Shown: piece after piece, positions 124-56,124 of the stretch | Layout: every line of letters begins with the position of its first letter | Numbering within the stretch: position 1 is the first letter of the stretch | NCBI RefSeq assembly: GCF_009014635.1 | Contig: NZ_BKCF01000004.1 | Coordinates: 248,001 to 312,000 of the forward strand | Length of the DNA: 64,000 bases | Direction of reading: 5' to 3' | From: Patiriisocius marinistellae | GTDB lineage: Bacteria; Bacteroidota; Bacteroidia; Flavobacteriales; Flavobacteriaceae | Position numbers and translations under genes: made by a program | Notes under the pieces: generated by a model | Database searches by the model: none | Seen by the model: only the letters and a program-made list of their open reading frames with translations | What the model was told of the DNA's origin: nothing

Positions 124-159
124 CTTCGGAAATTTTAAATTGTTGTTATATTTCCGAAG
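124..159. repeat. Inverted pair of the CTTCGGAAAT motif at the pssA 3' end
   Basis: CTTCGGAAAT at 124-133 and its exact reverse complement at 150-159 form a perfect 10-bp stem with a 16-base loop spanning the pssA stop codon. There is no T-run after the stem on the minus strand, so it is not a classical intrinsic terminator, although an RNA hairpin would form in the pssA message. Confidence 0.8.
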
Positions 160-889
160 GTTTCCAAAAGATTGAAATAAGGATATACAAGGCGATGATA
201 ATTGGAATTGCAATAAACTTAAGCAATAAAATCAAAGCGAAACAAACTATTAAAAACACATACCGAATGCTGTTTTTCTTTACTCCCCATGTTTTAAATT
301 TTAAGGCAAAGAGTGGCAATTCTGCATTTAATAGAATGCAACTTACAAGGGTTAAAATTATTAATAACCATTTATTAAGTATGATTTCTTCAATTTGAAT
401 AGAATTTTGAAATGCAAGAACAAGTGGTAAACTTAAAATTAGCAATGTATTTGCAGGAGTAGGTAATCCTATAAAACTGGAAGTTTGCCTTGTGTCAACA
501 TTAAATTTTGCTAAACGATATGCAGAACCCACCGTGATTAGTAACCCAATAAATGGAATGTAACTTATGATTGAGGTGTTCCAGCCGTCTTCTGCAAAAA
601 CATTAATGATGTCTAATGTGTGTCCTGTGATTGCTTGACTTAGTAATTGTACCATTACAATCCCTGGTACTACACCACTTGTAACCATATCTGCCAATGA
701 GTCTAGCTGTAATCCTACATCACTATGCGCATTGAGTGCTCGCGCGGCAAGCCCATCAAAAAAATCAAAGAAAATTCCTGCAAATGCAAAAAATGCTGCT
801 GAAACTAAATCCCCAGACACTGCAAAAATCATCGCGACACACCCACATAAAAGATTGAGTGAAGTTATAATGTTAGGTATTTGTTTCAT
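146..889 (-). CDS. pssA: CDP-diacylglycerol--serine O-phosphatidyltransferase
   Basis: Membrane enzyme that joins serine to CDP-diacylglycerol to make phosphatidylserine, the precursor of phosphatidylethanolamine. The CDP-alcohol phosphotransferase signature is complete: D42, D45, G46, A49, R50, G59, D63 and D67, inside DFFDGLAAR and the following GLQLDSLAD. The rest of the 247 residues is mostly hydrophobic helices, as expected for the family. It starts at an ATG (889) and is divergent from the PorV2-like gene. The last codons and the sequence just past the stop contain an inverted pair of the dispersed CTTCGGAAAT motif. Family assignment is firm; serine as acceptor is inferred from length and overall resemblance to bacteroidal PssA. 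Confidence 0.93.
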   Translation of the reverse strand: MKQIPNIITSLNLLCGCVAMIFAVSGDLVSAAFFAFAGIFFDFFDGLAARALNAHSDVGLQLDSLADMVTSGVVPGIVMVQLLSQAITGHTLDIINVFAEDGWNTSIISYIPFIGLLITVGSAYRLAKFNVDTRQTSSFIGLPTPANTLLILSLPLVLAFQNSIQIEEIILNKWLLIILTLVSCILLNAELPLFALKFKTWGVKKNSIRYVFLIVCFALILLLKFIAIPIIIALYILISIFWKPSEI

Positions 890-1010
890 GTCTTTAAAAT
901 TTCAGAAATTACAAAAAATTATTAAAAAATTACACTTTGCAAATTTTAACAGATGGCTTTTGTAAAAATAGCAAAGTATTTTCGTCTAACTACTGCAGCG
1001 TACAATATGT

Positions 1011-2144
1011 ATGCAAAATAACAGTTTAATATCTTGTAAAATAGTAAGATATTTGCCAAAAATTACAAGCTTGAAGAAGACCTTATTTTTATTCCTTTCT
1101 ATCTCCATTTTTTCTCTGGTAGCATCTGCTCAAACCGTACGAAAATATTCTAACGAATTTTTAAATATTGGGGTTGATGCAGCAGCGTTTGGTATGGCAA
1201 ATTCTGTCGTTGCTTCAACGGGTGATGTAAATTCTGGATATTGGAATCCTGCAGGACTTGTTAATCTTGAAGATAAAGAACTTTCTTTGATGCACGCTTC
1301 ATATTTTGCAAATATTGCTAACTATGATTATGCGGCTTTTGCAATGCCACTTGATGACCAGAGTGCGGTTGCCTTATCTGTTATACGATTTGGTGTAGAT
1401 GATATTTTGAACACCACTCAATTAATAGATGACCAAGGTCAAATAAATTATGATCGTATTAGTCTTTTCTCAACGGCTGATTATGCATTTACTTTTTCGT
1501 ATGCAAAAAGATTACCGTTAGATGGCTTAAACATTGGTGTCAATGCCAAGGTAGTACGCCGCATTATTGGAGATTTTGCATCTTCTTGGGGATTTGGTCT
1601 AGATGCTGGATTACAATTTAAACGTGGTAATTGGAATTTTGGATTAATGGCGAGAGATATTACAACGACCTATAATGCATGGTCTATTGATGAAGAACAG
1701 TTTGCTGAAATACAAGGTGCTGTTGAAGGACAAAATCAAGATTTACCAGAAACTACTGAAATTACTATCCCAAAACTTCAAATAGGGATGTCTCGTAAAT
1801 TTGTACATCATTATGATTATTCTCTTCTTGCAGAAGTGGATATGAATGTAAGATTTGCACAAACTAATGATATTATTTCTAGCTCATCTGTAAGTGTTAC
1901 TCCTTCTCTGGGGCTACAGTTTGGTTACATCGATATGATTTACTTACGCGGTGGTGTTGGTAATTTTCAAAATATTGAGCAACTAGATGGTGAAGATTCT
2001 GTAGGATTCCAGCCCAACTTTGGCGTAGGTTTCAATTACAAAGGCATTCAAGTAGATTATGCTTTGACAGATATAGGTGACCAAAGTGCAGCATTATATT
2101 CTAATGTTTTTTCACTAAAAGTTGATTTGAGTATCTTTAGATAA
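1011..2144 (+). CDS. PorV2-like type IX secretion-associated outer-membrane protein
   Basis: A 377-residue PorV/PorQ-family beta-barrel protein, predicted in the outer membrane. The N-terminus has a signal peptide (hydrophobic stretch about 24-40, cleavage after VASA), then the family hallmark region with FLNIGVDAAAFGMA and GYWNPAGL near residues 50-80. Strand-like segments follow to a C-terminal aromatic/arginine end (SIFR). PorV proteins shuttle or anchor type IX secretion cargo; the PorV2 group is a conserved bacteroidal relative whose exact role is less clear. The ATG at 1011 leaves a long n-region; a TTG near 1071 just before KKTLFL could also serve. It is followed after 25 bases by a DUF4105 gene on the same strand. 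Confidence 0.8.
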   Translation: MQNNSLISCKIVRYLPKITSLKKTLFLFLSISIFSLVASAQTVRKYSNEFLNIGVDAAAFGMANSVVASTGDVNSGYWNPAGLVNLEDKELSLMHASYFANIANYDYAAFAMPLDDQSAVALSVIRFGVDDILNTTQLIDDQGQINYDRISLFSTADYAFTFSYAKRLPLDGLNIGVNAKVVRRIIGDFASSWGFGLDAGLQFKRGNWNFGLMARDITTTYNAWSIDEEQFAEIQGAVEGQNQDLPETTEITIPKLQIGMSRKFVHHYDYSLLAEVDMNVRFAQTNDIISSSSVSVTPSLGLQFGYIDMIYLRGGVGNFQNIEQLDGEDSVGFQPNFGVGFNYKGIQVDYALTDIGDQSAALYSNVFSLKVDLSIFR

Positions 2145-2169
2145 TCTAAACTTGCAACGTTATTACTTC

Positions 2170-3360: not shown

Positions 3361-3470
3361 AAGTTCTTCGGAAATATGACATGAATTTAATCTCTTAATT
3401 CTATTTTACCTTATCAAAAAATTATAATTATTGCTATTAAGAAACAAAATAGTAATCCCCAATTATAGTA

Positions 3471-4865
3471 TCACTGCCCACGGAAGAAAATAATTGTACT
3501 TAATGTTTTTACCACAATACTAATGTCTAAAAACATACTACGGTGTTTAATGTAATATAAGTCATATTGAAGTTTTTCAAGTGCATCCTCCTGTGTCATT
3601 CCATATTTAGCATTTACCTGTGCCCAACCTGTAACACCAGGTTTTACAATATGTCTTACTTCGTAAAAAGGTATCGTTTCAGAAAGGTTTTCTACAAATA
3701 TGGGACGTTCTGGGCGAGGTCCAATGACACTCATCTCACCTTTTATGACATTAATAAATTGAGGGATTTCATCAAAACGAGATTTTCTTAGAAAACGACC
3801 AAATTTTGTAACTCTACTGTCTCCCTCTTGCGCAAATTGTGCTCCGTGTTTTTCAGCATCGGTTACCATGCTTCTGAGTTTGTAGATTTTAAAATGTTTA
3901 CCATTCTTCCCTATTCGGGTTTGTGTGTAAAACATAGGTCCTTTATTGCCCAGCAAATTTCCGAAGATAATGATTGGAGAAATAAGTAATCCAAAGGCAA
4001 CTCCTAGAATTGAAAAAAAGATGTCCAATACACGATGGAAAAATAAATATAGTTTGTTTTGGTTACTTCGGCTAAATGGAAAATAACGGTAAAAATCTTT
4101 ATCTACATGTTGTACTGGAACCCTGTGAGTAATCTCTTCATATACCTGTGTATACTCTTTAATAGGTACCCCGCTTTCTAGTAACAATATGAGCTTATTA
4201 TATAAAGAAACTGTCATTCCCTCTGCTTGAGGTGTTGCTATGACGATTTCAGAAATGAACATATCAGAGATTGAATCTGCTGTATCATTTTGTTCTATTT
4301 TTCTTACGTGAGGACTAAGAAATGGATTTTCGATATCGTTTTTAGTGCTAACAAAACCAACTACCCTATAATTAGGGTCACTCTTTTGCAGAGAATCTAT
4401 TATGACGTTCACATCATTTTCATTCGCTATTAATAATACTCTTTTATGAAATCTGGGAGCAGAAATTAGTACAATATATGCATAACGCCAAATGAGTAAT
4501 GCAAGATTTATTGCTACATAGAAATAGACTATTTGCAATCTGTTTTCAGGAAGTTCTGGTGTGAAAAATGGTGTTAAAAGGTAAAATAATACCGTTAATG
4601 ACGAGGTTAAAACCACGTTTTGTACAACAACTTCAAACTTACTTGCTTTTTGAAGATTATATAATTCAAATATTGTCGCAAAAATTGACAGGTAAAATGC
4701 GAGAACAATTGACCAAACCCAGTGTATAGAATTGATTTTAAAATAATCAAAATTAAATGCTTGACCTATAAAATATAAAATAGCTAGAACGCTCACAATG
4801 TCTAGAATGCGCAACAAAACTTTACGCTCGGAGATATCAAAATGGATATTCGATTTTTTAGACAT
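3471..4865 (-). CDS. Polyprenyl glycosylphosphotransferase (WcaJ-like priming enzyme)
   Basis: Transfers a sugar-1-phosphate from a nucleotide sugar to undecaprenyl phosphate, the first step of repeat-unit assembly. About four N-terminal membrane helices precede a CoA-binding-like middle region. The C-terminal bacterial sugar transferase domain follows, with GPMFYTQTRIGKNGKHFKIY, the KLRSMVTDAE stretch, KSRFDEIPQFINV, GEMSVIGPRPER and KPGVTGWAQVNAKYG. I start at the ATG (4865, MSKKSNIHF); an in-frame TTG at 4886 adds seven residues. It is the last gene of the 30 kb polysaccharide locus and converges with the DUF4105 gene. Which sugar is transferred is not visible. Confidence 0.9.
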   Translation of the reverse strand: MSKKSNIHFDISERKVLLRILDIVSVLAILYFIGQAFNFDYFKINSIHWVWSIVLAFYLSIFATIFELYNLQKASKFEVVVQNVVLTSSLTVLFYLLTPFFTPELPENRLQIVYFYVAINLALLIWRYAYIVLISAPRFHKRVLLIANENDVNVIIDSLQKSDPNYRVVGFVSTKNDIENPFLSPHVRKIEQNDTADSISDMFISEIVIATPQAEGMTVSLYNKLILLLESGVPIKEYTQVYEEITHRVPVQHVDKDFYRYFPFSRSNQNKLYLFFHRVLDIFFSILGVAFGLLISPIIIFGNLLGNKGPMFYTQTRIGKNGKHFKIYKLRSMVTDAEKHGAQFAQEGDSRVTKFGRFLRKSRFDEIPQFINVIKGEMSVIGPRPERPIFVENLSETIPFYEVRHIVKPGVTGWAQVNAKYGMTQEDALEKLQYDLYYIKHRSMFLDISIVVKTLSTIIFFRGQ

Positions 4866-4895
4866 TGGGTAGTTTTGGAGGCTCAAAAATAACGA

Positions 4896-7226: not shown

Positions 7227-8282
7227 CTAAATGCTTTTATAAAAAGTAAGTAGTTGTGGCACAACTGTTTTAAGTCCGTAATTTGCCAATATATGCTCTC
7301 TAAATAATTTTGAGTCATATTTGCACATCTCTAAATCGTTTATATATTCAATTAAAGCTTGCGCTAATTGATTACAATTATCATTTTCAACAATTTTTCC
7401 AAATGTACCTATAACTTTAGGACATTGCCCCACATTAGTACATACTACGGCAAGTCCAAAGGCACCATATTCTAATAACGCCATAGGAAGCCCCTCGTCA
7501 CTTGATGATAACACTCCAATAAGTGCAGTTTTAAGTTCTAAATTTACATTAGCAACAACCCCTTTGAAGGTTACGTTGTCCGTTAGCTTATTTAGTTTTA
7601 CAAAATCCTTCAAATTTTGAGAATATGTATCATTGAAATCTTTTCCAATCAATTTTAAATTCCAATAAGGGAATTGGGCATTCACAATTTTAAATGCTCT
7701 CAATAAATTAATATGGTTTTTAGGCTCTTTTAAGTTAGCTACACAAACTATACTTTGTTCTCTTCGTTTTTCTTCTTCGGAAATATTAGCGACTGAAACA
7801 AAATTAGGAATATATTCAACTTTAGAGTTAGACAGATATGTTAAACACCATTTTTTTAAAGGCTCATTAACTGTCAATATTCCCGAAAATAATTTTGAGC
7901 ATCCATAAAGCACTTTATTATTTATTCTTGAAGTGTGTACTCTATTACCTTGATGTTCGTGCCAAATGAGTTTTAATCTTGGCACTCTTAATTTTAATAA
8001 GGTTGCAAAGAAATAAGAAGTTGTATGTGCATGAACAATATCAACATTATTTTCCTTTACGTATTTCTTCAAACGACTAAGTGCTTTCAAATCAAATGTT
8101 CCTTTCTTTTTAATAAATAAATAAGGCACATTTTTATCAAGAGTATTATTTAAAATACCTTCTTTACGAGTTACTGCTATAGCACTAAAATCAATCTTGC
8201 TGTGTAATGTATTTGCAAAAGTAACAGCTACACGTTCTGCTCCTCCAGCATCAAGGTTATCTATTAATTGTAGCACTCTCAT
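7227..8282 (-). CDS. Glycosyltransferase family 4
   Basis: A 351-residue GT-B enzyme. The N-terminal acceptor domain starts with LQLIDNLDAGGAERVAV, whose GGAER loop is typical of GT4, followed by DIVHAHTTSYFF and HEHQGNR. The C-terminal donor domain has VCVANLKEPKNH and SSDEGLPMALLEYGAFGLAV with the conserved E-x7-E-type acidic pair. It starts at an ATG that overlaps the stop of the upstream gene by four bases, so the two are probably coupled. The sugar specificity is unknown. Confidence 0.87.
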   Translation of the reverse strand: MRVLQLIDNLDAGGAERVAVTFANTLHSKIDFSAIAVTRKEGILNNTLDKNVPYLFIKKKGTFDLKALSRLKKYVKENNVDIVHAHTTSYFFATLLKLRVPRLKLIWHEHQGNRVHTSRINNKVLYGCSKLFSGILTVNEPLKKWCLTYLSNSKVEYIPNFVSVANISEEEKRREQSIVCVANLKEPKNHINLLRAFKIVNAQFPYWNLKLIGKDFNDTYSQNLKDFVKLNKLTDNVTFKGVVANVNLELKTALIGVLSSSDEGLPMALLEYGAFGLAVVCTNVGQCPKVIGTFGKIVENDNCNQLAQALIEYINDLEMCKYDSKLFREHILANYGLKTVVPQLLTFYKSI

Positions 8283-9391
8283 TTTAAAAGCTTTTTTATT
8301 TCAGTTTCAAAAGTATCTAATGTATATTGTTGTGACCACTCTATCCCTTTTTTAGACATCAAAAGTAGTTTCTCTCTATTTGAAAGTAATTTAGAAATTG
8401 TCATTTTATCTTTTTCTAAATCCAAATTTAATAAAACTCCCCGCTCACCAAAATTTAACATCCAAGGGACACATGAAACAGGTGTTGCTATTGGAATTGC
8501 TCCCCAAAACATAGCTTCGGCTAATACTTTTGGCCAGCCTTCAGATTTTGAAGGAAGGATTGAGAAATCACTATTTTGATACGCTAATTTAAGCGAATCT
8601 GCATTTTGATTTCCCATAAAAAGTATACTTTCTTGTAGATTATTATTAACTACATAAGTTTCTAACTCTTCTCGTTTTATGCCATCTCCGTAAAATTTCA
8701 GTGAACAAAAAAAACCGTTTTTAATTAATTTTTCAATGAGTTTAATTGCATAGATTGGCCTTTTGCCATTTACTAAACTACCAACAAATAAAAAACTAAA
8801 TGGGGCATGGAACCTATTACTTTCAAATTGACAAATTTCCGAAGTTCTATAGGAAGCCGTGAAAAAGGATTTTATATTTTTTGATTGATTAAACCAGTCA
8901 CCATATACTAAAACTTGCATGTTTTTTGTCCAGAATGTATTTGACAACAACCATTTTTGAAATCGATAACTTAGCGGTTGTTCTGCTTTTGGATCCCAAT
9001 TTCCTGCATATTTTGCTGTTTTTTTAATTGATGGAAAAAAAACTTGTGTAAGACAACCTAAGAGACCAATATTGCCTGGGCATCTAAGATGAATATGATC
9101 TGCCTTTTTCATTTCTAGTATAAGACGAAATAAAATAAAAGGTATAAAAACAACGGATTTTAAGGCAAACCAAGGACTACTAAATTTTAAAAAAGGAATA
9201 CTTTTTACGGTAATATCATTTCGCTTAAAAGCATCGGTTAATAAAACTGGTTTATATTTTGTAGGAGATACAATTGTCACCTCACTTACATCTTCCATCC
9301 ATATGTTCATTTCTTTAACATATGGTGCGTAAGATTTAAAACCGTAGTCTGTTTTAAGAGTAGGCGCAAGTGTTACTACGAGTAATTTCAT
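8279..9391 (-). CDS. Glycosyltransferase family 4
   Basis: A 370-residue GT-B enzyme. The N-terminal half is less typical but holds ADHIHLRCPGNIGLLG. The C-terminal half is clearly GT4: FLFVGSLVNGKRPIYAIKLI, LKFYGDGIKREEL and SKSEGWPKVLAEAMFWGAIP with the conserved acidic residues, then VSCVPWML. It overlaps the downstream gene by four bases and the upstream acetyltransferase by one base, so it is in a tightly coupled part of the locus. Donor and acceptor unknown. Confidence 0.85.
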   Translation of the reverse strand: MKLLVVTLAPTLKTDYGFKSYAPYVKEMNIWMEDVSEVTIVSPTKYKPVLLTDAFKRNDITVKSIPFLKFSSPWFALKSVVFIPFILFRLILEMKKADHIHLRCPGNIGLLGCLTQVFFPSIKKTAKYAGNWDPKAEQPLSYRFQKWLLSNTFWTKNMQVLVYGDWFNQSKNIKSFFTASYRTSEICQFESNRFHAPFSFLFVGSLVNGKRPIYAIKLIEKLIKNGFFCSLKFYGDGIKREELETYVVNNNLQESILFMGNQNADSLKLAYQNSDFSILPSKSEGWPKVLAEAMFWGAIPIATPVSCVPWMLNFGERGVLLNLDLEKDKMTISKLLSNREKLLLMSKKGIEWSQQYTLDTFETEIKKLLK

Positions 9392-11060: not shown

Positions 11061-12418
11061 TAAATATTCTTTAAAATTTTTTCTGAAGCCATTGTAGCAT
11101 TATCTATAACGATTTTAAACCAAGCATCAATTTCAGTATTATTTTCAGCAATGGCACTCTCTAAAATGTTTAAAATTTCGGCTTTGCTATTAAACCAAAG
11201 TACTGCTTTTTTAGATGGCATACTCCTAAAATGCTGATAGTTGTAAATTGTTTTTACAGACCAATTGGGGTCAATTACATGATCATAATTGATATAAACA
11301 CAAGGTTTTTTAAACATTGCAAAATCAAATGCCATTGTAGAGCCTACATTTATAACTACGTCTGCATAATATGCTAATGAGACTAACAAACTCACATCAT
11401 CAATAGTAGGATAAACTGCAGTCCATTTATCACTGTTGTAATTCCATAGTGGCGGAATTTCAATTATTAGTTTTGGGAATTTTTTCACCACCCAATCGTA
11501 GCGTCCACTTACATCTACTGGGCATCTTCTAAAAACAATTTGATAGTCATTTTGTTTATTCCCCTTTGTAATTGCCGTTGCAATATCATCAAGGTAATGA
11601 GGATCGTAAGGAGATGTTTTTATGTCATCTCCAGAAAAACAAATTATTTTTTTATCAGGGTTTAATCTATTTTTAGAATAAAAATCTTGTTCTGGAATGA
11701 TGTATTTTTCTTCTTTATAAAATTCGAATTGAGGTGTCCCTGTAATTACAATTTGAGAGGTTTCAATTTCTGGATAAAAATTTTTTAGTTCATTTTTCAT
11801 AAAAGGAGACCAAACAAGATATTTGTCTGCTTTTAATGCTAAACGAGCTTTAGGAATGTTATCCCAAGAGTAAATTACTGTAGAAGTTTTAACACCCAGA
11901 TCTTGAGCAGCGGCAAAAATTATTGGTGCTTTAAGTGCTCGTTGATGGGTACAAAAAAGTGCGTCTGGCTTATTAGCTTTTAAAATTTCGTACACTTTTA
12001 CATAGAGTGGGTTTTTTCTTATAGCTTTTTGATAACGCTTTTCTAGCTTTAATATTTGCTCGTAGGAGTTAATTGTTTTTGAAGCAATTTCAACAGCACC
12101 ATAAAAAAGTTGTAGTTTTTTTGTAGCGTGTGTACGTTTATAAAATTTTAATATCGTGGGATTTTGCTGGGTGATTGCATTATGTTTTATCCTACATAAA
12201 TGGATAAGTTCTCTTAAAAATTTTTCGGTATAACTTTCTTTATATGCTGGAATTTGAATGTCTTCATCTAGCTTGATTTCTTCGGAAATATGTGCTAAAG
12301 TATCATGGTCAAAATTATGAAAGAGTGATAATTTTACATCTTTCTCTTTAAAAACGTTACTGTACAAGTAATTTTTAATACCTGTACCGTCTGGACAAAA
12401 AATGAGAGCTTTTTTCAA
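11060..12418 (-). CDS. Putative GT-B glycosyltransferase of unknown family (next to neuA)
   Basis: A 452-residue protein I cannot place in a named family. The C-terminal half resembles UDP-glycosyltransferase or CDP-glycerol/capsule transferase-like GT-B enzymes: YSWDNIPKARLALKADKYLV, VITGTPQFEFY, IICFSGDDIKTSPYDPHYLD, and VINVGSTMAFDFAMFKKP with the GSTMAFD loop where such enzymes bind the nucleotide. The start is a TTG with an in-frame stop two codons upstream, so it is fixed. A promoter-like TATATTTG lies just upstream in the 85-base gap to neuA. That position makes it one candidate for the transferase using CMP-activated sialic-type sugar; this is inference only. Confidence 0.6.
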   Translation of the reverse strand: MKKALIFCPDGTGIKNYLYSNVFKEKDVKLSLFHNFDHDTLAHISEEIKLDEDIQIPAYKESYTEKFLRELIHLCRIKHNAITQQNPTILKFYKRTHATKKLQLFYGAVEIASKTINSYEQILKLEKRYQKAIRKNPLYVKVYEILKANKPDALFCTHQRALKAPIIFAAAQDLGVKTSTVIYSWDNIPKARLALKADKYLVWSPFMKNELKNFYPEIETSQIVITGTPQFEFYKEEKYIIPEQDFYSKNRLNPDKKIICFSGDDIKTSPYDPHYLDDIATAITKGNKQNDYQIVFRRCPVDVSGRYDWVVKKFPKLIIEIPPLWNYNSDKWTAVYPTIDDVSLLVSLAYYADVVINVGSTMAFDFAMFKKPCVYINYDHVIDPNWSVKTIYNYQHFRSMPSKKAVLWFNSKAEILNILESAIAENNTEIDAWFKIVIDNATMASEKILKNI

Positions 12419-12503: not shown

Positions 12504-13199
12504 TTATTTACTTAATTGTTTAATAATCATTTCAGCTTTTTTCCAATCTTCCATTGTATCTATATTTACATATGACGAAGCATCGGTTTCTATATATGTA
12601 GTACTATTTCCGAAGAAAGAATTTTCCTCCATCAAAGTTCTCGTCTTAGTAATATAAATTGCTCCATCTCTAATAAATGCATCTGGTAGCTCTTGACGAC
12701 GTTTGATAATTCTAGTCTCTCCAGTTGCTATTTTTAAATTTCCGTTCTTTTCTTCAAAAACCCAATGGGGATTAAATTGATGTGGTACTTTTTGTACTGA
12801 AATCAAACTGTCACAATTATTTTTTTTAAATTTTCTGATTGCTAAATCAATAGTTTCTGCTGTTCTAAAAGGTGTGGTCACTTGTAATAAACAAACGGCA
12901 TCAAAATAAATACCTTTCTCTTTATAAAAAGAAATAGCATGTTTTACAACCTCTAAAGACCCTGCTGCATCTGTAGCCAAATGAGCTGGTCTTTTAAAAG
13001 GCACTGATATGCCTTGTGACTTTGCTAAGGAAATTAGTATATCATCCTCAGAGGTGAAAATTACCTCATCAAGTAATTGAGATTCTTTGGCAGCAGTTGT
13101 TGTGTATTGCAATAATGGAATACCATTAAGTAACTTTCGATTTTTATTTGGAATTCCTTTACTACCCCCACGTGCTGGTATAATACCTAAAATTTTCAT
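12504..13199 (-). CDS. neuA: Acylneuraminate cytidylyltransferase (CMP-sialic-type sugar synthetase)
   Basis: Activates a nonulosonic acid with CTP to give the CMP-sugar donor. The 231-residue protein begins with the nucleotide-binding motif IIPARGGSKGIPNKNRK (residues 6-22), followed by FTSEDD, LLQVTTPFRT and a C-terminal RDGAIYITKT-type stretch, all typical of NeuA/LegF/PseF. It is the last of three adjacent genes (neuB, neuC, neuA), joined by a one-base overlap. Because the middle gene is a UDP-GlcNAc-type hydrolysing epimerase and no bacillosamine or legionaminic-acid enzymes are near, N-acetylneuraminate is the simplest substrate. Confidence 0.9.
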   Translation of the reverse strand: MKILGIIPARGGSKGIPNKNRKLLNGIPLLQYTTTAAKESQLLDEVIFTSEDDILISLAKSQGISVPFKRPAHLATDAAGSLEVVKHAISFYKEKGIYFDAVCLLQVTTPFRTAETIDLAIRKFKKNNCDSLISVQKVPHQFNPHWVFEEKNGNLKIATGETRIIKRRQELPDAFIRDGAIYITKTRTLMEENSFFGNSTTYIETDASSYVNIDTMEDWKKAEMIIKQLSK

Positions 13200-14359: not shown

Positions 14360-14361
14360 GC

Positions 14362-15357
14362 CTATTTAAAATCTTCTTCATTTAAAAACTCCCATTTTTC
14401 AATATCTCTTGTTACTTGTTTTCCTAATAATTGCTCATAATTTGCAGCGTCAATTCCATATCCTTTTGGTTTTTTTGCTTCAAGATCTTCAAATGTAATT
14501 GTATGCCCTTTGTTAACTTTTTTATTTATCGCCAATGATTTTTCAAAAATTGATTTTAAATCATCAAAATTTGAATTATCTGTTTTATCAATTGGAAATT
14601 TTAATGCTTCGGAAATTTCTTTCACTCCTTTCACTAACTGTGCTGTTTGGGTCATTGTTAAAGATGAAGAAACATCTGGACCAAATTGTGCCTTATCAAA
14701 AATTACGTGAAATTCTAGAATTTCGGCACCCAAAGCAACCGCCGCTATTCCAGCCGCAACTGTTGCAGAATGGTCTGAAAAACCAACCGTAACTCCGTAG
14801 CGTTTTTTTAATTGGGCTATTACATTTAAACCATATTGTTTAGGCTGCGTAGGGTAGCTTGTGGTACATTGTAAAATAGAATAGTTTGCGTTATGAGATT
14901 TTAGAAATTTGATAGTAGCATTTAATTCTTCAAAAGAGCTCATTCCGCTAGAAATAATGATGGGCTTTTTCGTTTCAATTACTTTTTTTAATAAAAGAAA
15001 GTTGTTTACTTCGCCACTACCTATTTTGTATTGTTCCACGCCAGCAGTTTCAAGTACATCAACAGCTTTATTACTAAAAGGGCTGCTCATAAAAATGAGT
15101 CCAACTTTTTTACAATGCTCTCCTATTTCTATCCACTGTTCCTGAGAAAATTCCATTCGTTTCCAGTAGTCAAAACGAGTTTTATCTTGTTTAGAAAATT
15201 TTACTCTAAAGGGTTCGTGTTTACTACTTTCTGCAGCAGCAATATGCGTTTGAAATTTAATCGCATCAACTCCAGTTTTTGCTACAGCATCTATATATGC
15301 ATGCAACATTCCTAAACTGCCATCGTGTGCTTGGCCTATTTCGGCAATGGTTAGCAT
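14362..15357 (-). CDS. neuB: N-acetylneuraminate synthase family protein
   Basis: Condenses N-acetylmannosamine (or a related 2,4-diacetamido sugar) with phosphoenolpyruvate to make a nonulosonic acid. The NeuB barrel runs from LTIAEIGQAHDGSLGMLHAY through DAIKFQTHIA, YKIGSGEVNNF, IIISSGMSS and VGFSDHS. A short antifreeze-like (SAF) domain occupies roughly residues 275-331 (VNKGHTITFEDLEAKKPKGY). The 331-residue length is normal. It is the first gene of the neuB-neuC-neuA set and overlaps the upstream glycosyltransferase gene by one base. Confidence 0.92.
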   Translation of the reverse strand: MLTIAEIGQAHDGSLGMLHAYIDAVAKTGVDAIKFQTHIAAAESSKHEPFRVKFSKQDKTRFDYWKRMEFSQEQWIEIGEHCKKVGLIFMSSPFSNKAVDVLETAGVEQYKIGSGEVNNFLLLKKVIETKKPIIISSGMSSFEELNATIKFLKSHNANYSILQCTTSYPTQPKQYGLNVIAQLKKRYGVTVGFSDHSATVAAGIAAVALGAEILEFHVIFDKAQFGPDVSSSLTMTQTAQLVKGVKEISEALKFPIDKTDNSNFDDLKSIFEKSLAINKKVNKGHTITFEDLEAKKPKGYGIDAANYEQLLGKQVTRDIEKWEFLNEEDFK

Positions 15358-16485: not shown

Positions 16486-17508
16486 TTAAAATTCAGAGTT
16501 TTTCATTCCCTTGCTTCTGAAATATATTCGCCTTAAACTATTATTTCTGATAATTACTCTATAGAGCACTTTTCCTATAAATTGAGAAAATTTTGAAATG
16601 CCTTTACTATTAAAATTAATGGCTGCCTCATTTCCGAAGTTATCAGAAGTAGTCAAAGCATCAAACATGGGTTTCATCCATGCCTCTTCTTTATTCCCTA
16701 AATGTCTTGCATAACAATCCATCGTAGCTAGACGCAAATATCCTGCTTTATCATTAGGCTCATCAATATACCTCTTTAATGATTCTCCTCCAATTTTAAA
16801 TTTAGTAGGGCGAGATGGGGCTTTTTCAAATACTTGTGACCGCATTGTAACTACAAAGTGCCCACAACCCATTGCGGCTTTCTTCTTTTTTTTTTGTAGT
16901 ACTAGATATGATTTAAAATGAATATTCTTAAATAAATGTGTCCCTATACTCTCTTGAAATTGTTTTAGAGCATTTGGGTTTACTACGGTATCAAATTTAA
17001 ATAGTCTATTAAAAAAACCATAATAAAATGTGCTATTTACATAGCTACTTTTGTAAGCTACTGGTGCTGGCACTGGAGCAACCATACCAGCTTTTGGGAA
17101 GTCAACAAATACTTGCTCAACAGCTTCTTGCCAATTGTTTAAAAATAAAACATCTGCATCTGTGACTGTTATTAATGGCTCTATATTGCTTTTGACCGCA
17201 CTATATATTGCATTAATTTTCCCAAGGTTAATATCACTCTCTAATAACTGGTCAATGGCTTCATTTTCAAATTTTATTTTTTTTAAATACTCAGTAACTA
17301 AAGTACAACATCCATTATTAATAATTGAAATTCGAGTGTTTTTATGAATTGTTTTAAGTAGACTTTGAAGGGAATATTTTAATATAGGTAATGCCTCCTT
17401 AAAATAGTCTTCCTCTGTGTTAGGAATATATACTGGCACTACAACTCTATGATAGGAAGATATCACAAGTTCTTTATCTACTTTTGTGGGATTGCTGCCT
17501 ACGCGCAT
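16486..17508 (-). CDS. GT-A type glycosyltransferase (family 2-like)
   Basis: A 340-residue single-domain glycosyltransferase. The N-terminal half has the GT-A nucleotide fold: VVVPVYIPNTEEDYFKEALP, ISIINNGCC, SDINLGKINAIYSAV and the metal-binding DxD-like VTDADVLFLNNW near residue 118. The C-terminal part (CGHFVVTMRSQVFE, LKRYIDEPNDKAGYLRLATM) is not a standard GT2 tail. There is no transmembrane segment, so it acts at the cytosolic face. It starts at an ATG one base upstream of the next gene's reading region. Substrate unknown. Confidence 0.75.
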   Translation of the reverse strand: MRVGSNPTKVDKELVISSYHRVVVPVYIPNTEEDYFKEALPILKYSLQSLLKTIHKNTRISIINNGCCTLVTEYLKKIKFENEAIDQLLESDINLGKINAIYSAVKSNIEPLITVTDADVLFLNNWQEAVEQVFVDFPKAGMVAPVPAPVAYKSSYVNSTFYYGFFNRLFKFDTVVNPNALKQFQESIGTHLFKNIHFKSYLVLQKKKKKAAMGCGHFVVTMRSQVFEKAPSRPTKFKIGGESLKRYIDEPNDKAGYLRLATMDCYARHLGNKEEAWMKPMFDALTTSDNFGNEAAINFNSKGISKFSQFIGKVLYRVIIRNNSLRRIYFRSKGMKNSEF

Positions 17509-22570: not shown

Positions 22571-23514
22571 AAAAAATGACCGTTTACTACTTCATTATAT
22601 CTAGTCAACCCCTTACCTGTTAGTTTATAAAAGACTGATATTACATAAAGTTTAAGCTTAAACATCATGCTTAATTGATTATTTTTAAAAAGAACATTAT
22701 TAAACAGTTGAAATTGTTTGGCTTTTAATGCATTTTTTAAGGAGTTAAAGTATCGTTGGGTTGGGTATAATCTTAATCTTTTTTCTAGTTTCATTGCATC
22801 AAAGAAAATAGCTTCCCGCACTAAAATTTCCGAAGTTAAATCCTCTTTTTTTAAATTAGAGAATTGAGAAGTGATTGTATTTACATGCAACCTTACTAAA
22901 CAATGTGCCTTAGTCACTTGAGTTATATTAGCTTTTTTTTGTGAAATACACTTATAGACAAAATCTAAATCTTGCGCCCTAGTTAGTGTTTCAGAAAATT
23001 TTATGTTTTTTACAAATTCTCTTCTATACATCAATGAAGGAATATTAAATACTAAATCTCCTAACAAATAGGATTCTAAGATATCTTCAGTTTTCTTACA
23101 GTTGTATGTTGCTTTTATATTTTTTGATGTTTTTTCAAAAGTTTTAAATCCACTAAATACTGCATCAATTTTACTGTCTATCAACGCAATTTTTTCTTCA
23201 AGCGCATTTTTAACCATCAAATCATCACTATCAAACCATTGTACAAATTCACCCTTAATTTTAGTAAACCCAAAGTTACGACAACTGTTTCCACCTTTAA
23301 TTAATGTTATTGGTCTATAGTAAAATTGTATTCTACCATCATTTTGCATATATCGTTGCATGACTTGCGAAGTAGTATCTGTAGAGCCGTCATCAACAAC
23401 AATACATTCCCAATTTTCATAGGTTTGTTGTTGTATTGAATCCAATGTTTCTGCAATCAAAGAAGCTCTATTATAAGTTGGGATTATTATGGAGACTAAT
23501 GGCTGTGCATTCAT
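22567..23514 (-). CDS. Glycosyltransferase family 2
   Basis: A 315-residue GT-A enzyme: VSIIIPTYNRASLIAETLDS, CIVVDDGSTDTTSQVMQRY, CRNFGF and QWFDSDDLM at the metal site. It is closely similar to the GT2 at 17539-18543 over the first 120 residues and diverges after, which suggests an in-locus duplication followed by change of acceptor. It starts at an ATG and its stop overlaps the next gene by four bases. Substrate unknown. Confidence 0.87.
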   Translation of the reverse strand: MNAQPLVSIIIPTYNRASLIAETLDSIQQQTYENWECIVVDDGSTDTTSQVMQRYMQNDGRIQFYYRPITLIKGGNSCRNFGFTKIKGEFVQWFDSDDLMVKNALEEKIALIDSKIDAVFSGFKTFEKTSKNIKATYNCKKTEDILESYLLGDLVFNIPSLMYRREFVKNIKFSETLTRAQDLDFVYKCISQKKANITQVTKAHCLVRLHVNTITSQFSNLKKEDLTSEILVREAIFFDAMKLEKRLRLYPTQRYFNSLKNALKAKQFQLFNNVLFKNNQLSMMFKLKLYVISVFYKLTGKGLTRYNEVVNGHFL

Positions 23515-24639: not shown

Positions 24640-25374
24640 TCAATTTTTAGCACTAAATTTAGTATAAAAAGCAATCTCAGTACTCAATTCTTGTTTTAAT
24701 TGCTTTACAATTTCGTGGGGCATTTCAGAAATAAAACTATTTTTTTGACCACTTCTAAATACTCCCTTTATATTAATTTTTGAGGTTTTGTCATTTTGTA
24801 ATATTATAGACCCTATATCTGAGGTTTCTATATTCAATTGCTTAAAAACTTTTAGAAGTTCCATTTCAGTATCTGCTAATAGATCTTCATAACGCACCAA
24901 AACAGCTTTCTTTAATTCTGAAAGTTCTATTAATTTAGCATAATACTCTTTTACTAATACGACGGCAGAAACTACATCATGAGAAGCAAAAGCCTTCATT
25001 TCAGACTTTAAAATTGAATTAACAATTGCAAGTGGATATCTTAAGATTATCAGTGGTGTACTATTAGGAAAATCATTTAAAATAGCCTCATACTGTAGCG
25101 TATGCATAGGAGTTTTTTCAATGACAGTCTTGTTTGGGTGTTGTTTTAAAAACAACTTTATCTTCTTTTTAGCCTTCTTCGGAAATTTTATATAAACACC
25201 AGATTCGCTTGTTGGATAAGAACCGTCCATGTTTTTTTTTACACCATCAATAAACGGAATCACCTCACTACTTGATTCCAACAAAGACCATAGCCATGTA
25301 GTCCCTCCACGTGGGGCTCCAAATATAAAAACAAGCTTTGCTGTCTTTTTATTGAAAAAGTTTTCAAAAATCAT
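24640..25374 (-). CDS. Sulfotransferase family protein
   Basis: A 244-residue PAPS-dependent sulfotransferase fold. The 5'-phosphosulfate-binding loop is FGAPRGGTTWLWSLLESS (residues 18-35), and the 3'-phosphate side shows PLIILRYPLAIVNSILKSEM with the conserved R-x-P-x-x-x-x-x-S pattern. The remainder (LVRYEDLLADTEMELLKVF) is typical. In this locus it probably adds sulfate esters to the polysaccharide. No PAPS-making genes are in the window, so the donor would come from elsewhere. It follows the wzt gene on the same strand after 44 bases. Confidence 0.85.
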   Translation of the reverse strand: MIFENFFNKKTAKLVFIFGAPRGGTTWLWSLLESSSEVIPFIDGVKKNMDGSYPTSESGVYIKFPKKAKKKIKLFLKQHPNKTVIEKTPMHTLQYEAILNDFPNSTPLIILRYPLAIVNSILKSEMKAFASHDVVSAVVLVKEYYAKLIELSELKKAVLVRYEDLLADTEMELLKVFKQLNIETSDIGSIILQNDKTSKINIKGVFRSGQKNSFISEMPHEIVKQLKQELSTEIAFYTKFSAKN

Positions 25375-26708: not shown

Positions 26709-26737
26709 TTTTTCTTCGGAAATATTAAATAATTGAC

Positions 26738-35288: not shown

Positions 35289-36068
35289 TTGTATTATCAA
35301 ATAAAGTCATATCTCAAATTCCTTAAAAAATCCAGAAATCAACACGGGGTCCACTCCCCGTTTGTGTATAATTTTTTAACTAAGTGTGCTTACAAAAAAG
35401 TTGATAACGCTTCCGCGGAAATTTTAAACAAGTATAGACTAACGTTACTTAAAGACACATCCTCTATTTCGATAAAAGATTTTGGCGCTGGCTCACGAGT
35501 ATTTAATACAAATAACCGTAACATAAATGCCATTGCAAAAAACGCAGGAATTACTAAAAAGAGACAACGCCTGCTTTTAAAAATAACCAGCTACTTCCAA
35601 TCTTCAAAAATTTTAGAACTAGGCACTTCTTTAGGATTAGCAACAGCAGCACTATCAAAAGGCAACCCAAATGCACTAATCAAAACAGTCGAAGGTTGTC
35701 CTGCTACAGCTTTGGTTGCAGAGAAATATTTTAAACAATTTAGCTTTAATAATATTGATTTAATCAACGCGAGGTTTGAAGATTTCTTTATTTCCGAAGC
35801 GTTTAAAAACAATAACTTTGACTTAGTTTATGTTGATGGAAATCACAACAAAGAACACACGCTAGATTATTTTGAGAAGCTACTTCCACATGTTCATAAT
35901 GATAGCGTTATAATTTTTGACGATATTTACTGGAGCAAATCCATGACACAAGCTTGGCAGCAAATTATTACACATCCACAAATTACCGTTAGCATTGATA
36001 GTTTTTATTGGGGGTTGGTTTTTTTTAGAAAAGAACAAAATAAAGAACATTTTACATTACGATTGTAA
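35289..36068 (+). CDS. Class I SAM-dependent methyltransferase (O-methyltransferase-like)
   Basis: A 259-residue protein with the conserved leader LKFLKKSRNQHGVHSPFVYN, then motif I ILELGTSLGLATAALSKG, strand-2 IKTVEGCPATA and the motif LVYVDGNHNKEHTLDYFEKL with VIIFDDIYWS, a pattern of metal-dependent O-methyltransferases. The start is a TTG and no ATG is suitably placed. One CTTCGGAAAT motif copy lies inside the gene (35790). Substrate unknown; it is not obviously part of a pathway with its neighbours. Confidence 0.78.
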   Translation: MYYQIKSYLKFLKKSRNQHGVHSPFVYNFLTKCAYKKVDNASAEILNKYRLTLLKDTSSISIKDFGAGSRVFNTNNRNINAIAKNAGITKKRQRLLLKITSYFQSSKILELGTSLGLATAALSKGNPNALIKTVEGCPATALVAEKYFKQFSFNNIDLINARFEDFFISEAFKNNNFDLVYVDGNHNKEHTLDYFEKLLPHVHNDSVIIFDDIYWSKSMTQAWQQIITHPQITVSIDSFYWGLVFFRKEQNKEHFTLRL

Positions 36069-42445: not shown

Positions 42446-42516
42446 ATTTGTTATTAAATATTTAAAGAAAAAAACTCATATTTATTTATCTTCGGAAATA
42501 TTAAACAACCACTACA

Positions 42517-42996
42517 ATGTTAAAAGGATTTAAGATTGAAATTAAATGGGCTATAATTATCACAATTATGTCCCTAGTATGGATGCTATTAGAAAAAACT
42601 CTAGGTTGGCATGACGAAAATATAGCAAACCATTATTGGCTCACTTTATTGTTTTTACCTTTTATAGCCTTAATGTATGTATTGGTTATGCGTGAGAAAA
42701 GAAGACGTGTACACCATAGAAGAATGACATGGTTACAAGGATTCTTAACAGGTCTCGTTGTAGCTATCATAGTTGCTCTACTTTCCCCATTAGCACAATA
42801 TATAACACACAACTATATAACACCCCAGTATTTTGAGAACGTAAAAAATTACAGTGTCACCAATGAATTAATGGCAATTAAAGAAGCAAATGAATATTTT
42901 AATATAAATAATTATATGTGGCAGGCTGCCATAGGAGGTCTTGTTGGTGGGGCTGTAGTAAGTGCCGTTGTGGCAATATTTTTAAGAAGATCGTAA
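42517..42996 (+). CDS. DUF4199 family membrane protein
   Basis: A 159-residue protein with four hydrophobic helices (about 8-28, 38-58, 73-98 and 133-155) and a cytosolic basic loop MREKRRRVHHRRM between helices two and three. The loop before the last helix (ITHNYITPQYFENVKNYSV, then EANEYFNINNYMW) is typical of DUF4199. Function unknown; common in Bacteroidota. A CTTCGGAAAT copy ending in ATTAAA lies 18 bases upstream of the ATG. Confidence 0.75.
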   Translation: MLKGFKIEIKWAIIITIMSLVWMLLEKTLGWHDENIANHYWLTLLFLPFIALMYVLVMREKRRRVHHRRMTWLQGFLTGLVVAIIVALLSPLAQYITHNYITPQYFENVKNYSVTNELMAIKEANEYFNINNYMWQAAIGGLVGGAVVSAVVAIFLRRS

Positions 42997-48252: not shown

Positions 48253-48272
48253 AATTATGTATTTTTTTTAAA

Positions 48273-49310: not shown

Positions 49311-49318
49311 TACTTTTG
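49311..49318 (+). promoter_or_regulatory. Promoter -7 box (TACTTTTG) for the GT2/LAB_N/ArnT-like operon
   Basis: TACTTTTG matches TAnnTTTG and ends 22 bases before the ATG at 49341, the usual distance. A -33 TTG is not evident. Confidence 0.55.
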
Positions 49319-49340
49319 CAAAAATAACCGCACCTATTTT

Positions 49341-52331: not shown

Positions 52332-52399
52332 TTTTATTTAAAAACCCTCCTTAGACATCTCTTCTTTGTGGGATGATAAATTGTTCTTGTCTTTTATTG

Positions 52400-53189: not shown

Positions 53190-53219
53190 TTGAATGATTT
53201 GTAATTTATGGTTTATAGT

Positions 53220-54599: not shown

Positions 54600-54616
54600 C
54601 GTAAATAAATTTTACG

Positions 54617-54624
54617 CAAATGTA
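54617..54624 (-). promoter_or_regulatory. Promoter -7 box (TACATTTG) of the MATE gene
   Basis: The minus strand reads TACATTTG, matching TAnnTTTG, 18 bases before the TTG start. This supports that start. No clear -33 TTG. Confidence 0.55.
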
Positions 54625-54826
54625 GGAAATGTGGGAGTTACTTTTTGATTTAAACTTTTGTTATTTCATGGAAATTTGGTTTAAAAAAGAAATAGATATT
54701 TAAACATAAATATATTTATTTTTATGCATTAATCTATAAATGTTTCTGAAGATAGCCTCCCTTATATATTACAATTTTACTACATTGAAATCTTATCAAA
54801 ATTATATATTATTACATCAAAAAAAT

Positions 54827-55282
54827 ATGCAATCTAAAGCCACAACCCCAGAACAGTATCTAGCAGAACTTCCCGAAGAACGCAAAAATATAGTCTCAAA
54901 ACTTAGAAATATTATTCTCAAAAATCTTCCAGATGGTTTTGAAGAATGCATGAATTATGGCATGTTGGGTTACGTTGTCCCCCATTCAATTTATCCTAAT
55001 GGCTACCATTGTGACACCACTCAACCATTACCATTTATGAACCTAGCTTCACAAAAAAACAGTGTTAATTTATATCATTCTGGTATTTATAGTGATCCTG
55101 AGCTTTTAAAGTGGTTTACCGAAGAACACAGCAAAGTCATTAAAACAAAGCTAGATATGGGAAAAAGCTGTATTCGATTTAAAAATGAAAGCCGCATTCC
55201 ATTTGACCTCATTGGTCAATTAGCAAGTAAAACAACTGTTAATGAATGGATTGCCACCTATGAAAGTGTTATAAAAAAATGA
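54827..55282 (+). CDS. DUF1801 domain protein
   Basis: A 151-residue protein: TTPEQYLAELPEERKNIVSK, the DUF1801 core NLPDGFEECMNYGMLGYVV, CDTTQPLPFMNLASQKNSVN and MGKSCIRFKNESRIPFDLIG. The domain is the YdhG-like fold of unknown biochemical role. I start at the ATG at 54827 (MQSKATTPEQYL); the frame is open 29 codons upstream, but that stretch is AT-rich and reads as non-conserved. The stop TGA overlaps the ATG of the DUF1853 gene, so the two are coupled. Confidence 0.85.
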   Translation: MQSKATTPEQYLAELPEERKNIVSKLRNIILKNLPDGFEECMNYGMLGYVVPHSIYPNGYHCDTTQPLPFMNLASQKNSVNLYHSGIYSDPELLKWFTEEHSKVIKTKLDMGKSCIRFKNESRIPFDLIGQLASKTTVNEWIATYESVIKK

Positions 55283-56124
55283 GAGGTTCTAAAAGTTCTT
55301 CGGAAATGAATAACATCGTAGCTCATTTTCTTAATATTCCAGTAGTTGATTTATTTTCTAAAAAATTTCCATATCAACCATTTATATTTCCAGAAGAGAA
55401 GATTGATAAAATTACTTCGGAAATTTCTGGCGTTCAACTACCTAATATTATTCTAGGAAAGCAAGCTGAATTTCTTTTTGAATTGTTACTAAAAAATTCT
55501 AAAACAATTGAATTACTTGCTGCTAACATCCAGATTAATGCTAAAAAACAGACTATTGGCGAACTTGATTATTTAATTAAAAATAAACTTAGCAACCAGA
55601 TCATTCACATAGAACTAGCCTGCAAATTCTATCTTTTTGACGAGTCTAGTAGTACAACTTTTGAAGAAAAATGGATTGGACCCAACCGAAAAGATACACT
55701 GTTTGACAAAGTAGTAAAATTTAAAAAAAAACAATTTCCGCTACTTTTTAACCCATTTGCTACTCCCTCATTAGAAGCGGCAAAAATTAATACTGAAAAA
55801 ATATTTCAGCAATATTACTTAACCTCATCTTTTTATGTTCCTAAAAGGTTTGATGTTCAAAAGCTTCCTACAGCATACCAACAATGTATTGTAGGCACTT
55901 GGGTTTATTTTGAAGATTTAATTTTTGAAGATGACTGTAAATATGCTATGCCTTCAAAAAGAGAGTGGTTATTACCATCTTCTAAAATTGTAGAATGGTT
56001 TAACCCATATGAAATTAAGGCTAAAATTTCCGAAGAAATAAAAAATAAAAGAGCGCCGCAGGTTTATAAAAAACAGGGCGCTCAAATTTCAAAATTCTTT
56101 GTTGTTTGGTGGAATACTCAATAA
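55279..56124 (+). CDS. DUF1853 family protein (possible nuclease-like fold)
   Basis: A 281-residue protein matching DUF1853, with IGELDYLIKNKLSNQIIHIE and the following LACKFYLF core and KWIGPNRKDTLFDKV. E95, D97, E112 and K116 could form a PD-(D/E)xK-like site, but the E-x3-K spacing is unusual, so this is tentative. The ATG at 55279 overlaps the DUF1801 stop; a second ATG at 55306 is possible. Three CTTCGGAAAT motif copies (55298, 55415, 56026) lie inside this one gene, and its 3' end also contains the terminator of the convergent peptidase gene. Confidence 0.75.
   Translation: MRGSKSSSEMNNIVAHFLNIPVVDLFSKKFPYQPFIFPEEKIDKITSEISGVQLPNIILGKQAEFLFELLLKNSKTIELLAANIQINAKKQTIGELDYLIKNKLSNQIIHIELACKFYLFDESSSTTFEEKWIGPNRKDTLFDKVVKFKKKQFPLLFNPFATPSLEAAKINTEKIFQQYYLTSSFYVPKRFDVQKLPTAYQQCIVGTWVYFEDLIFEDDCKYAMPSKREWLLPSSKIVEWFNPYEIKAKISEEIKNKRAPQVYKKQGAQISKFFVVWWNTQ
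56051..56083 (-). terminator. Terminator for the M28 peptidase, inside the DUF1853 coding end
   Basis: GAGCGCC (56051-56057) and GGCGCTC (56077-56083) form a perfect 7-bp GC-rich stem with a 19-base loop. On the minus strand it is followed by TTTTATTTTTT, so it is a good intrinsic terminator 46 bases past the peptidase stop. It overlaps the last codons of the opposing gene. Confidence 0.7.

What the first reader, a model, noticed from the sequence alone, without database searches (positions are those of the whole stretch)
124..56035. A conserved 10-mer, CTTCGGAAAT, dispersed 18 times across the window on both strands
Seen directly: 10 copies forward and 8 reverse, in 14 coding and 4 intergenic positions, across unrelated genes (pssA, neuB, wzt leader, DUF1853, methyltransferase, secA-DUF4199 gap) and in several reading frames. 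One-mismatch relatives are few, so the exact core is preserved. By hand, taking G+C at about 34%, a 10-mer of this composition is expected roughly 0.1-0.2 times on both strands of 64 kb. Strand balance argues against Chi or KOPS-type polar signals; core plus an A/T base after it resembles the DNA uptake sequences of Haemophilus and Neisseria, which this lineage is not known to have. Alternatives are a nucleoid-protein, methyltransferase or regulator site.
Basis: partly seen in the sequence, partly recalled or inferred. Interest (0 to 1): 0.8.

Follow-up and report, generated by a model that had tools for sequence, protein, structure and literature searches.

The report
Genome-wide DNA watermark in flavobacteria
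A ten-letter DNA word is scattered about 830 times through this bacterium's genome and looks like the "self" labels that some other bacteria use to recognise their own DNA during uptake, a kind of label that my searches did not find described in this phylum.

Summary
CTTCGGAAAT occurs 18 times in the window (0.13 expected) and 833 times in the 3.34-Mb genome (reversed control 16). Protein constraint does not explain it: a partial genome sample has 77 coding copies against 3.6 in synonymous-codon shuffles. The motif has no polarity, prefers intergenic DNA, forms head-to-head pairs, and extends beyond the core. Those are hallmarks of Haemophilus/Neisseria uptake sequences. The core CTTCGGAA is at least 3x its reversed control in 32 of 397 Flavobacteriaceae genomes, with endings that differ between genera; outside this genus the intergenic preference is missing. 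Six small-genome members of the same genus lack the motif. The genome has ComEC, DprA and a barrel/DUF5689 pair of the type that Riemerella needs for transformation, but no hit to the type IV pilus/T2SS ATPase family. I read it as a DNA-uptake (self-recognition) sequence used by a machine without type IV pili. The uptake function and the receptor are inferred, not shown. Competence genes also occur in motif-poor relatives, so co-occurrence does not settle the matter. No such motif in Bacteroidota turned up in my searches of the held library.

The parts
124..133 (+). exact copy, intergenic; left arm of a head-to-head pair with 150-159
   Evidence: the pair folds as a stem of 10-11 bp
150..159 (-). 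exact copy at the 3' end of a CDP-alcohol phosphatidyltransferase ORF (146-889, -); right arm of the pair
3366..3375 (+). exact copy, intergenic, 5 bases after an Lnb-domain ORF (2152-3360, +)
3957..3966 (-). exact copy in a bacterial sugar transferase ORF (3471-4886, -)
7775..7784 (+). exact copy in a glycosyltransferase ORF (7227-8282, -)
8835..8844 (-). exact copy in a glycosyltransferase ORF (8279-9391, -)
12280..12289 (+). exact copy in an ORF without Pfam match (11060-12418, -)
12606..12615 (-). exact copy in a cytidylyltransferase ORF (12504-13199, -)
14607..14616 (+). exact copy in a NeuB-family ORF (14362-15357, -)
16630..16639 (-). exact copy in an ORF without Pfam match (16486-17508, -)
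22826..22835 (-). exact copy in a family-2 glycosyltransferase ORF (22567-23514, -)
25177..25186 (+). exact copy in a sulfotransferase ORF (24640-25374, -)
26714..26723 (+). exact copy, intergenic between a Wzt-type ABC ATPase ORF (25419-26708, -) and an ABC-2 permease ORF (26738-27601, -)
35790..35799 (-). exact copy in a methyltransferase ORF (35289-36068, +), at a poorly conserved stretch of the protein
42490..42499 (+). exact copy, intergenic between secA (39031-42393, +) and a DUF4199 ORF (42517-42996, +)
55298..55307 (+). exact copy in a DUF1853 ORF (55279-56124, +)
55415..55424 (+). second exact copy in the DUF1853 ORF
56026..56035 (-). third exact copy in the DUF1853 ORF, opposite strand

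Best explanation
CTTCGGAAAT is the core of a DNA-uptake (self-recognition) sequence of naturally transformable flavobacteria. Proposed working: (1) a surface receptor binds double-stranded DNA carrying the core plus flank positions T-5, T-2, T12, A14 and A23, preferring it over other DNA; (2) bound DNA crosses the outer membrane without a type IV pilus, most likely through the TonB-receptor-like barrel with its DUF5689 lipoprotein and, I suggest, the adjacent nuclease; (3) ComEC, DprA and RecA finish uptake and recombination; (4) because fragments carrying the motif are taken up more often, motif-bearing alleles replace motif-less ones by recombination, so the motif builds up genome-wide wherever sequence is permissive. 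Shown here: the excess, its double-strand and frame-independent character, the extended site, the core's spread in the family with variant endings, and the presence of the ComEC, DprA and barrel/lipoprotein/nuclease genes (RecA was not searched). Inferred: that the motif promotes uptake, that this strain is competent, which protein reads the motif, and the drive.
For: Copy number: 833 in 3.34 Mb, reversed control 16. Same genus: G006 605, G005 474, G007 345, G009 239 (59% complete). Not protein or codon use: coding 77 vs 3.62 +/- 1.71, maximum 8 of 200 synonymous shuffles. The 8-mer core is about 10- to 15-fold over shuffles in all six strand/frame classes in G000 and above the shuffle mean in all six in G353, G435, G342, G022 and G102, and in 5 of 6 in G006, G358, G406 and G348 (counts small in several). 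No polarity: 63:64 in 464 kb, 120:107 in 864 kb against GC skew. Intergenic preference: 83 of 227 sites in 9.2% of bases, p 3e-29. Pairs: 14 of 17 neighbours within 100 bp are head-to-head, p 1e-6. Extended site after removing copies with a near neighbour: T-2, T12, A14 in 55 isolated intergenic sites; T-5, T-2, T12, A14, C19, A23 in 129 isolated coding sites, all past Bonferroni 0.01. Family: CTTCGGAA at >=3x reversed control in 32 of 397 genomes, up to 2678 copies; first de novo 8-mer in 7 of 11 sampled genomes with a raised count, not listed in two low-count controls. Genes: ComEC 27 of 29, DprA 28 of 29, DUF5689 26 of 29, barrel 27 of 29 chosen genomes, all four in G000. In Riemerella anatipestifer a DUF5689 gene and its operon partner are essential for transformation (PMC8459023, abstract and second part of Results read). 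R. columbina prefers its own DNA (PMC7965970, that section read).
Against: No uptake or binding experiment exists for this organism in anything I saw. ComEC and DprA are present in 6 of 6, and DUF5689 in 5 of 6, of the motif-poor members of the same genus, and in motif-poor genera such as G024. On the barrel tree the label is clustered (3 changes vs 8.8 shuffled) but not one clade, and that may be phylogeny alone; the lipoprotein tree, with many weak branches, splits the genus, so that gene does not track the motif's form. Outside the genus the intergenic preference is absent in all 8 other-genus samples, and G353 shows a deficit (9 of 232 sites in 9.7% of bases, p 0.001; G435 3 of 90, p 0.05). 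Against intergenic composition the core is still about 5- to 20-fold raised in five of six other-genus samples, with 1 to 9 copies each, and absent in A. lipolytica (0 vs 0.28). Of the extended site, only T at -2/-1 is seen there, in 6 of 8 samples. Whether mobile elements lack the motif was not tested.
Confidence: 0.74

Rival explanations
1. Binding site of a sequence-specific nucleoid or chromosome-organising protein; the A/T flank positions would reflect DNA bending.
For: Hundreds of sites on both strands, roughly random spacing (CV 0.99), an extended A/T-flanked site.
Against: Within one genus five genomes carry hundreds of copies and six are at background, and endings differ between genera; an architectural protein would be expected to be more stable. 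The exact core outnumbers the excess of single mismatches (127 vs about 107), tighter than usual for such proteins (general knowledge).
Confidence: 0.09
2. Chi-like signal for AddAB/RecBCD or another polar recombination or segregation signal.
For: Over-represented oligomer in coding and non-coding DNA.
Against: No polarity against GC skew (63:64; 120:107); head-to-head pairing and conserved flank positions up to 13 bp past the core are not features of Chi or KOPS sites as I recall them.
Confidence: 0.05
3. Site of a DNA methyltransferase, or a mutational or repair bias that creates the word.
For: DNA-level and frame-independent; patchy between species.
Against: Restriction sites tend to be avoided, not gained (general knowledge). 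A mutational bias does not predict flank positions at -5, 12, 14 and 23 nor the intergenic excess in this genome; the lack of intergenic preference in other genera does leave some room for it there.
Confidence: 0.05
4. Transcription terminator, regulator site or small-repeat family.
For: Head-to-head pairs fold as stem-loops (z -2.3 to -7.1 in five strands from four pairs); intergenic sites lie close to 3' ends (median 32 bp, against 77 bp to 5' ends).
Against: 144 of 227 sites are inside ORFs; densities are equal in convergent, divergent and tandem gaps (1.05, 0.92, 1.03 per kb); no flank column beyond +23 passes the test within 45 bp on either side, so there is no longer copied element. Terminator use may be secondary, as reported for USS/DUS (PMC13020248, passages).
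Confidence: 0.04

Closest known systems
Uptake signal sequence (USS) of Pasteurellaceae
   Same: Strong 9-bp core with two A/T-rich segments on its 3' side spaced by about a helical turn, no orientation bias, non-coding preference, oppositely oriented close pairs, two core types in one family (PMC1626085, abstract and passages read).
   Different: Different core and phylum; about 1 copy per 4 kb here instead of about 1 per kb; no hit to the PilB/PilT-type ATPase family in this genome; function untested here.
DNA uptake sequence (DUS) dialects of Neisseriaceae
   Same: Word of about 10 bp; dialects around a shared core; inverted pairs (PMC3630211, passages read).
   Different: Different word; the Neisseria receptor ComP is a minor type IV pilin (PMC4906244, search listing), whereas the T4P/T2SS ATPase family was not found in G000; Neisseria DUS is described without flanking motifs (PMC1626085, passages).
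Riemerella natural transformation
   Same: R. anatipestifer needs ComEC, DprA, ComF, RecA and a DUF5689 gene with its operon partner, types of which ComEC, DprA and the pair are present here; R. columbina prefers its own DNA (PMC8459023, PMC7965970, sections read). The R. columbina abstract calls R. anatipestifer a member of Flavobacteriaceae.
   Different: The k-mer count for R. columbina, R. anatipestifer and F. johnsoniae lists only A/T-dominated words among the most frequent (PMC7965970, Table 3). I did not search a Riemerella genome for this core.

Membership tests
USS/DUS-type uptake sequence | hundreds to thousands of copies genome-wide, far above composition and codon expectation | tested here: met
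USS/DUS-type uptake sequence | no orientation bias | tested here: met
   63:64 in 464 kb; 120:107 in 864 kb
USS/DUS-type uptake sequence | present in coding DNA but preferring non-coding DNA | tested here: met
   met in this genome (83 of 227) and weakly in G006 of the same genus (6 of 21, p 0.01); NOT met in any of 8 other-genus samples
USS/DUS-type uptake sequence | closely spaced oppositely oriented pairs | tested here: met
   14 of 17 pairs within 100 bp head-to-head, p 1e-6
USS/DUS-type uptake sequence | shared by related species, with dialects | tested here: met
USS/DUS-type uptake sequence | increases DNA uptake or transformation by the same species | not testable with these tools
   needs uptake and competition assays
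USS/DUS-type uptake sequence | competence genes in the genome | tested here: met
   ComEC, DprA, DUF5689 and barrel in G000, but also in motif-poor relatives
type IV pilus-based uptake (as in Neisseria and Haemophilus) | PilB/PilT-type (T2SSE) ATPase | tested here: not met
   0 matches in G000 at E <= 0.001; 19 of 29 genomes have some match, 4 over the family cut-off and 3 strong (G075, G358, G342; E<1e-120). No other pilus family was searched
Chi / KOPS-type polar signal | strand bias along the replichore | tested here: not met
   by GC skew of 20-kb stretches and the window; whole replichores not read

The most novel reading that the evidence does not exclude
A section of the Flavobacteriaceae (18 genera in this sample) marks its genomes with a TTnCTTCGGAA-type watermark in genus-specific dialects. 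The watermark is read at the outer membrane by a pilus-independent DNA importer made of a TonB-like barrel, a DUF5689 lipoprotein and a nuclease. That would be a third, independently evolved self-DNA recognition system, and the first not built on type IV pilins.
Probability: 0.45. Interest if true: 0.93.

Novelty: new variant of a known kind. Interest (0 to 1): 0.83.

Why it matters
The uptake sequences that I found described come from two proteobacterial families whose uptake runs on type IV pili. An independent origin in Bacteroidota, in a genome with no hit to the pilus ATPase family, would show that self-DNA marking is a convergent outcome of transformation rather than a quirk of type IV pilins. 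It might explain why R. columbina prefers its own DNA, point to a receptor in the Riemerella-type machinery, and give a practical tag for transforming flavobacteria in the laboratory. A genus with five motif-rich and six motif-poor members is a natural experiment on gain and loss.

Tried and rejected
Codon or protein constraint: rejected by synonymous shuffles and by the six-class test; at 35790 the protein is poorly conserved among relatives. One duplicated region: rejected. Polar signals: no bias. Terminator as primary function: equal density in all gap types. Presence or absence of competence genes as the reason for patchiness: not supported. DUF5689 lipoprotein as the determinant of the motif's form: its tree splits the genus in several places. 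EM motif searches seeded with other words in A. lipolytica and G067 gave loose or codon-periodic motifs. Solved-structure search: one chance-level hit for the barrel (E 0.11) and weak hits for the lipoprotein (best E 0.0026, a DUF4955 protein, residues 353-453). Tracing site origin by aligning orthologous DNA at two window sites gave too little alignment to use. The 10-mer in the paper library: 92 papers hold either strand; the 20 listed looked by title and abstract start like unrelated or primer matches, the other 72 were not seen. Structure prediction was not run: its stated rule does not list stretches taken from genomes as allowed sources.
Full report
WHAT WAS CHECKED. The 18 exact copies of CTTCGGAAAT are at the given positions, 10 forward and 8 reverse, with 0.13 expected in dinucleotide shuffles. 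Fourteen lie inside ORFs and four between them, setting aside one short overlapping ORF at 93-398. One-mismatch copies in the window number 17, with about 4.8 expected. The window lies in G000:C4, a 3,338,299-base genome of 30 contigs, 99.95% complete. The whole genome has 428 + 405 = 833 exact copies; the same word read backwards has 16.

NOT CODONS, NOT PROTEINS. Besides the window I sampled 40 stretches of 20 kb of contig C1, in all about a quarter of the genome. In the first 464 kb, 77 coding copies compare with a mean of 3.62 (sd 1.71, maximum 8 of 200) when synonymous codons are shuffled inside each gene, and the reversed word has none. The 8-mer core CTTCGGAA is about 10- to 15-fold over such shuffles in all six combinations of strand and frame in G000. 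That is a property of double-stranded DNA, not of the message.

ANATOMY OF THE SITE. In 864 kb there are 227 exact sites: 83 outside ORFs of at least 90 codons although such DNA is only 9.2% of bases (p 3e-29). Strand against GC skew is 120:107 (63:64 in the first 464 kb). Convergent, divergent and tandem gaps hold 1.05, 0.92 and 1.03 sites per kb. Of 17 neighbouring pairs within 100 bp, 14 are head-to-head; 7 of the 17 have offsets of 24-27 bp (p 1e-6 for head-to-head). Five strands from four such pairs (one in the window) fold into a stem of the two cores (z -2.3 to -7.1). Leaving out every copy with a neighbour within 120 bp, flank columns that pass a Bonferroni threshold of 0.01 are T-2, T12 (49 of 55) and A14 in intergenic sites, and T-5, T-2, T12 (92 of 129), A14, C19 and A23 in coding sites (+1 is the first core base and 0 the base before it). 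So the recognised site spans about 29 bp rather than 10, with A/T positions just past the core and again about a helical turn on. Among one-mismatch forms CTTCTGAAAT stands out (37 vs 2.4).

WHO HAS IT. In the genus, 5 of 11 genomes are rich (833, 605, 474, 345 and 239 copies) and 6 are at background (6-34 copies). The six are 1.7-2.1 Mb and 77-90% complete; four of them match named MAGs by identical counts. In 397 genomes of the family, 20 hold at least 100 copies of the 10-mer, each at least 3x its control (counted by eye). The 8-mer core is at least 3x its reversed control in 32 of 397 genomes; 30 of these have 499 or more copies and fall in 18 genera, up to 2678 copies in G353; two have low counts (G334, G441) (counted by eye). 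Most of the others look at or below control. Named carriers are Aequorivita lipolytica 914 (control 191), A. vitellina 886 (195), A. viscosa 503 (216, only 2.3x) and three MAGs with 583, 917 and 1555.

DIALECTS. De novo 8-mer ranking against codon shuffles in 13 genome samples put CTTCGGAA first in 7 (G000, G006, G358, G342, G353, G022, A. lipolytica), second in G348 behind TTCTGAAA and third in G067. In G406 and G155 it is not among the seven listed; TTCTGAAA and TTCAGCAA lead there. The full word differs: CTTCGGAAAT in this genus, CTTCGGAAAG and CTTCGGAAG in G353. The two low-count controls, one of the same genus (G010), list no such word.

WHERE THE PATTERN IS WEAKER. Outside the genus the core shows no intergenic preference in any of 8 samples: G353 9 of 232 sites (a deficit, p 0.001), G435 3 of 90 (p 0.05), G358 3 of 47, G342 1 of 25, G022 3 of 61, A. 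lipolytica 0 of 23, G406 1 of 13, G348 1 of 26. Against intergenic composition it is about 12-, 5-, 20-, 8- and 13-fold raised in G353, G435, G358, G342 and G022, on 1 to 9 copies each, and absent in A. lipolytica (0 vs 0.28). Of the extended site only T at -2/-1 is seen, in 6 of 8. These genera may use a shorter site, or their excess may have another cause. Samples there are 97-300 kb.

THE LIKELY MACHINE. G000 carries ComEC and DprA. On contig C1 it has a locus of a 952-residue barrel-type protein with a CarbopepD_reg_2 domain, a DUF5689 protein directly after it, and a divergent Exo_endo_phos_3 nuclease. 'Barrel' and 'lipoprotein' are my readings of these sequences; Pfam found no barrel domain in the 952-residue protein. 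The DUF5689 gene and its neighbour correspond in type to two genes that are essential for transformation in R. anatipestifer (PMC8459023, abstract and second part of Results read); this is a match of domain type and arrangement, not a sequence comparison. The barrel has a relative in 27 of 29 chosen genomes; the DUF5689 gene lies beside it in 25 of 27 loci, the other two being short; the nuclease in 26 of 27. The T2SS/type IV pilus ATPase family has no match in G000; 19 of 29 genomes have some match, but only G075, G358 and G342 a strong one. Uptake here is therefore probably not pilus-driven. I tested only this one pilus family.

WHAT DOES NOT FIT NEATLY. The six motif-poor members of the genus keep DprA and ComEC (6 of 6) and DUF5689 (5 of 6), so loss of competence genes is not the simple cause. 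On the barrel tree the 14 motif-rich genomes fall in one part (support 87/75), with the six and G020 inside it; the label needs 3 changes against 8.8 in shuffles, but near relatives cluster anyway. The genus is not one group in either the barrel or the lipoprotein tree; in the latter only 9 of 22 inner branches are well supported. Between G000 and G007 the nuclease is 89% identical, the barrel 70% and the lipoprotein 49%. That suggests exchange or fast change at the surface proteins, but phage or other pressure would do the same.

PRIOR WORK. 'Uptake sequences' + Bacteroidota + 'natural transformation' gave 0 papers. The related searches mostly show capped lists; in the titles and abstract starts shown I saw no flavobacterial uptake sequence beyond the R. 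columbina paper's open question. A 2026 survey of terminators reports USS/DUS in Pasteurellaceae and Neisseriaceae (PMC13020248, passages read). The R. columbina paper reports preference for own DNA, but its k-mer tables list only A/T-dominated words (PMC7965970, section read). Most subscription journals and preprints were not searched, so 'not in print' is limited to this library.

VERDICT. A genuine genome-wide, double-strand DNA signal with the main sequence hallmarks of an uptake sequence, in a phylum where my searches found none. Function is inferred; I put it at about three in four.

Noticed in passing
G020, G317, G460 (one genus, g11): CTTCGGAA is strongly avoided (7, 5 and 10 copies against 54, 60 and 98 of the reversed control), perhaps a restriction site overlapping the word.
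   Followed up: no
G441: The reversed control word AAGGCTTC is nearly absent (5 copies; genus mate G283 has 140), suggesting avoidance of some word inside it.
   Followed up: no
G348 L151-L155, G358 L141-L145, G155 L146-L150: Unidentified repeated 10-mers (CTACCAACTA, ACTCACAACT, CTCTCGCTCA types) with almost no expectation, perhaps dispersed or tandem repeats.
   Followed up: no
L096:4784-10277 and L184-L210: Conserved barrel / DUF5689 lipoprotein / divergent nuclease locus; between G000 and G007 the two surface proteins differ far more than the adjacent nuclease.
   Followed up: partly
G005, G006, G155, G358: The DUF5689 protein is a longer form (open frames of 729-756 residues) with two DUF5689 matches, shared across two genera.
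   Followed up: partly
window 55279-56124: A DUF1853 ORF holds three motif copies within 740 bp.
   Followed up: no
window 3471-28579: Surface-polysaccharide cluster (glycosyltransferases, NeuB, cytidylyltransferase, sulfotransferase, Wzt-type ABC exporter) holding 10 of the 18 copies, so no sign of depletion there.
   Followed up: no
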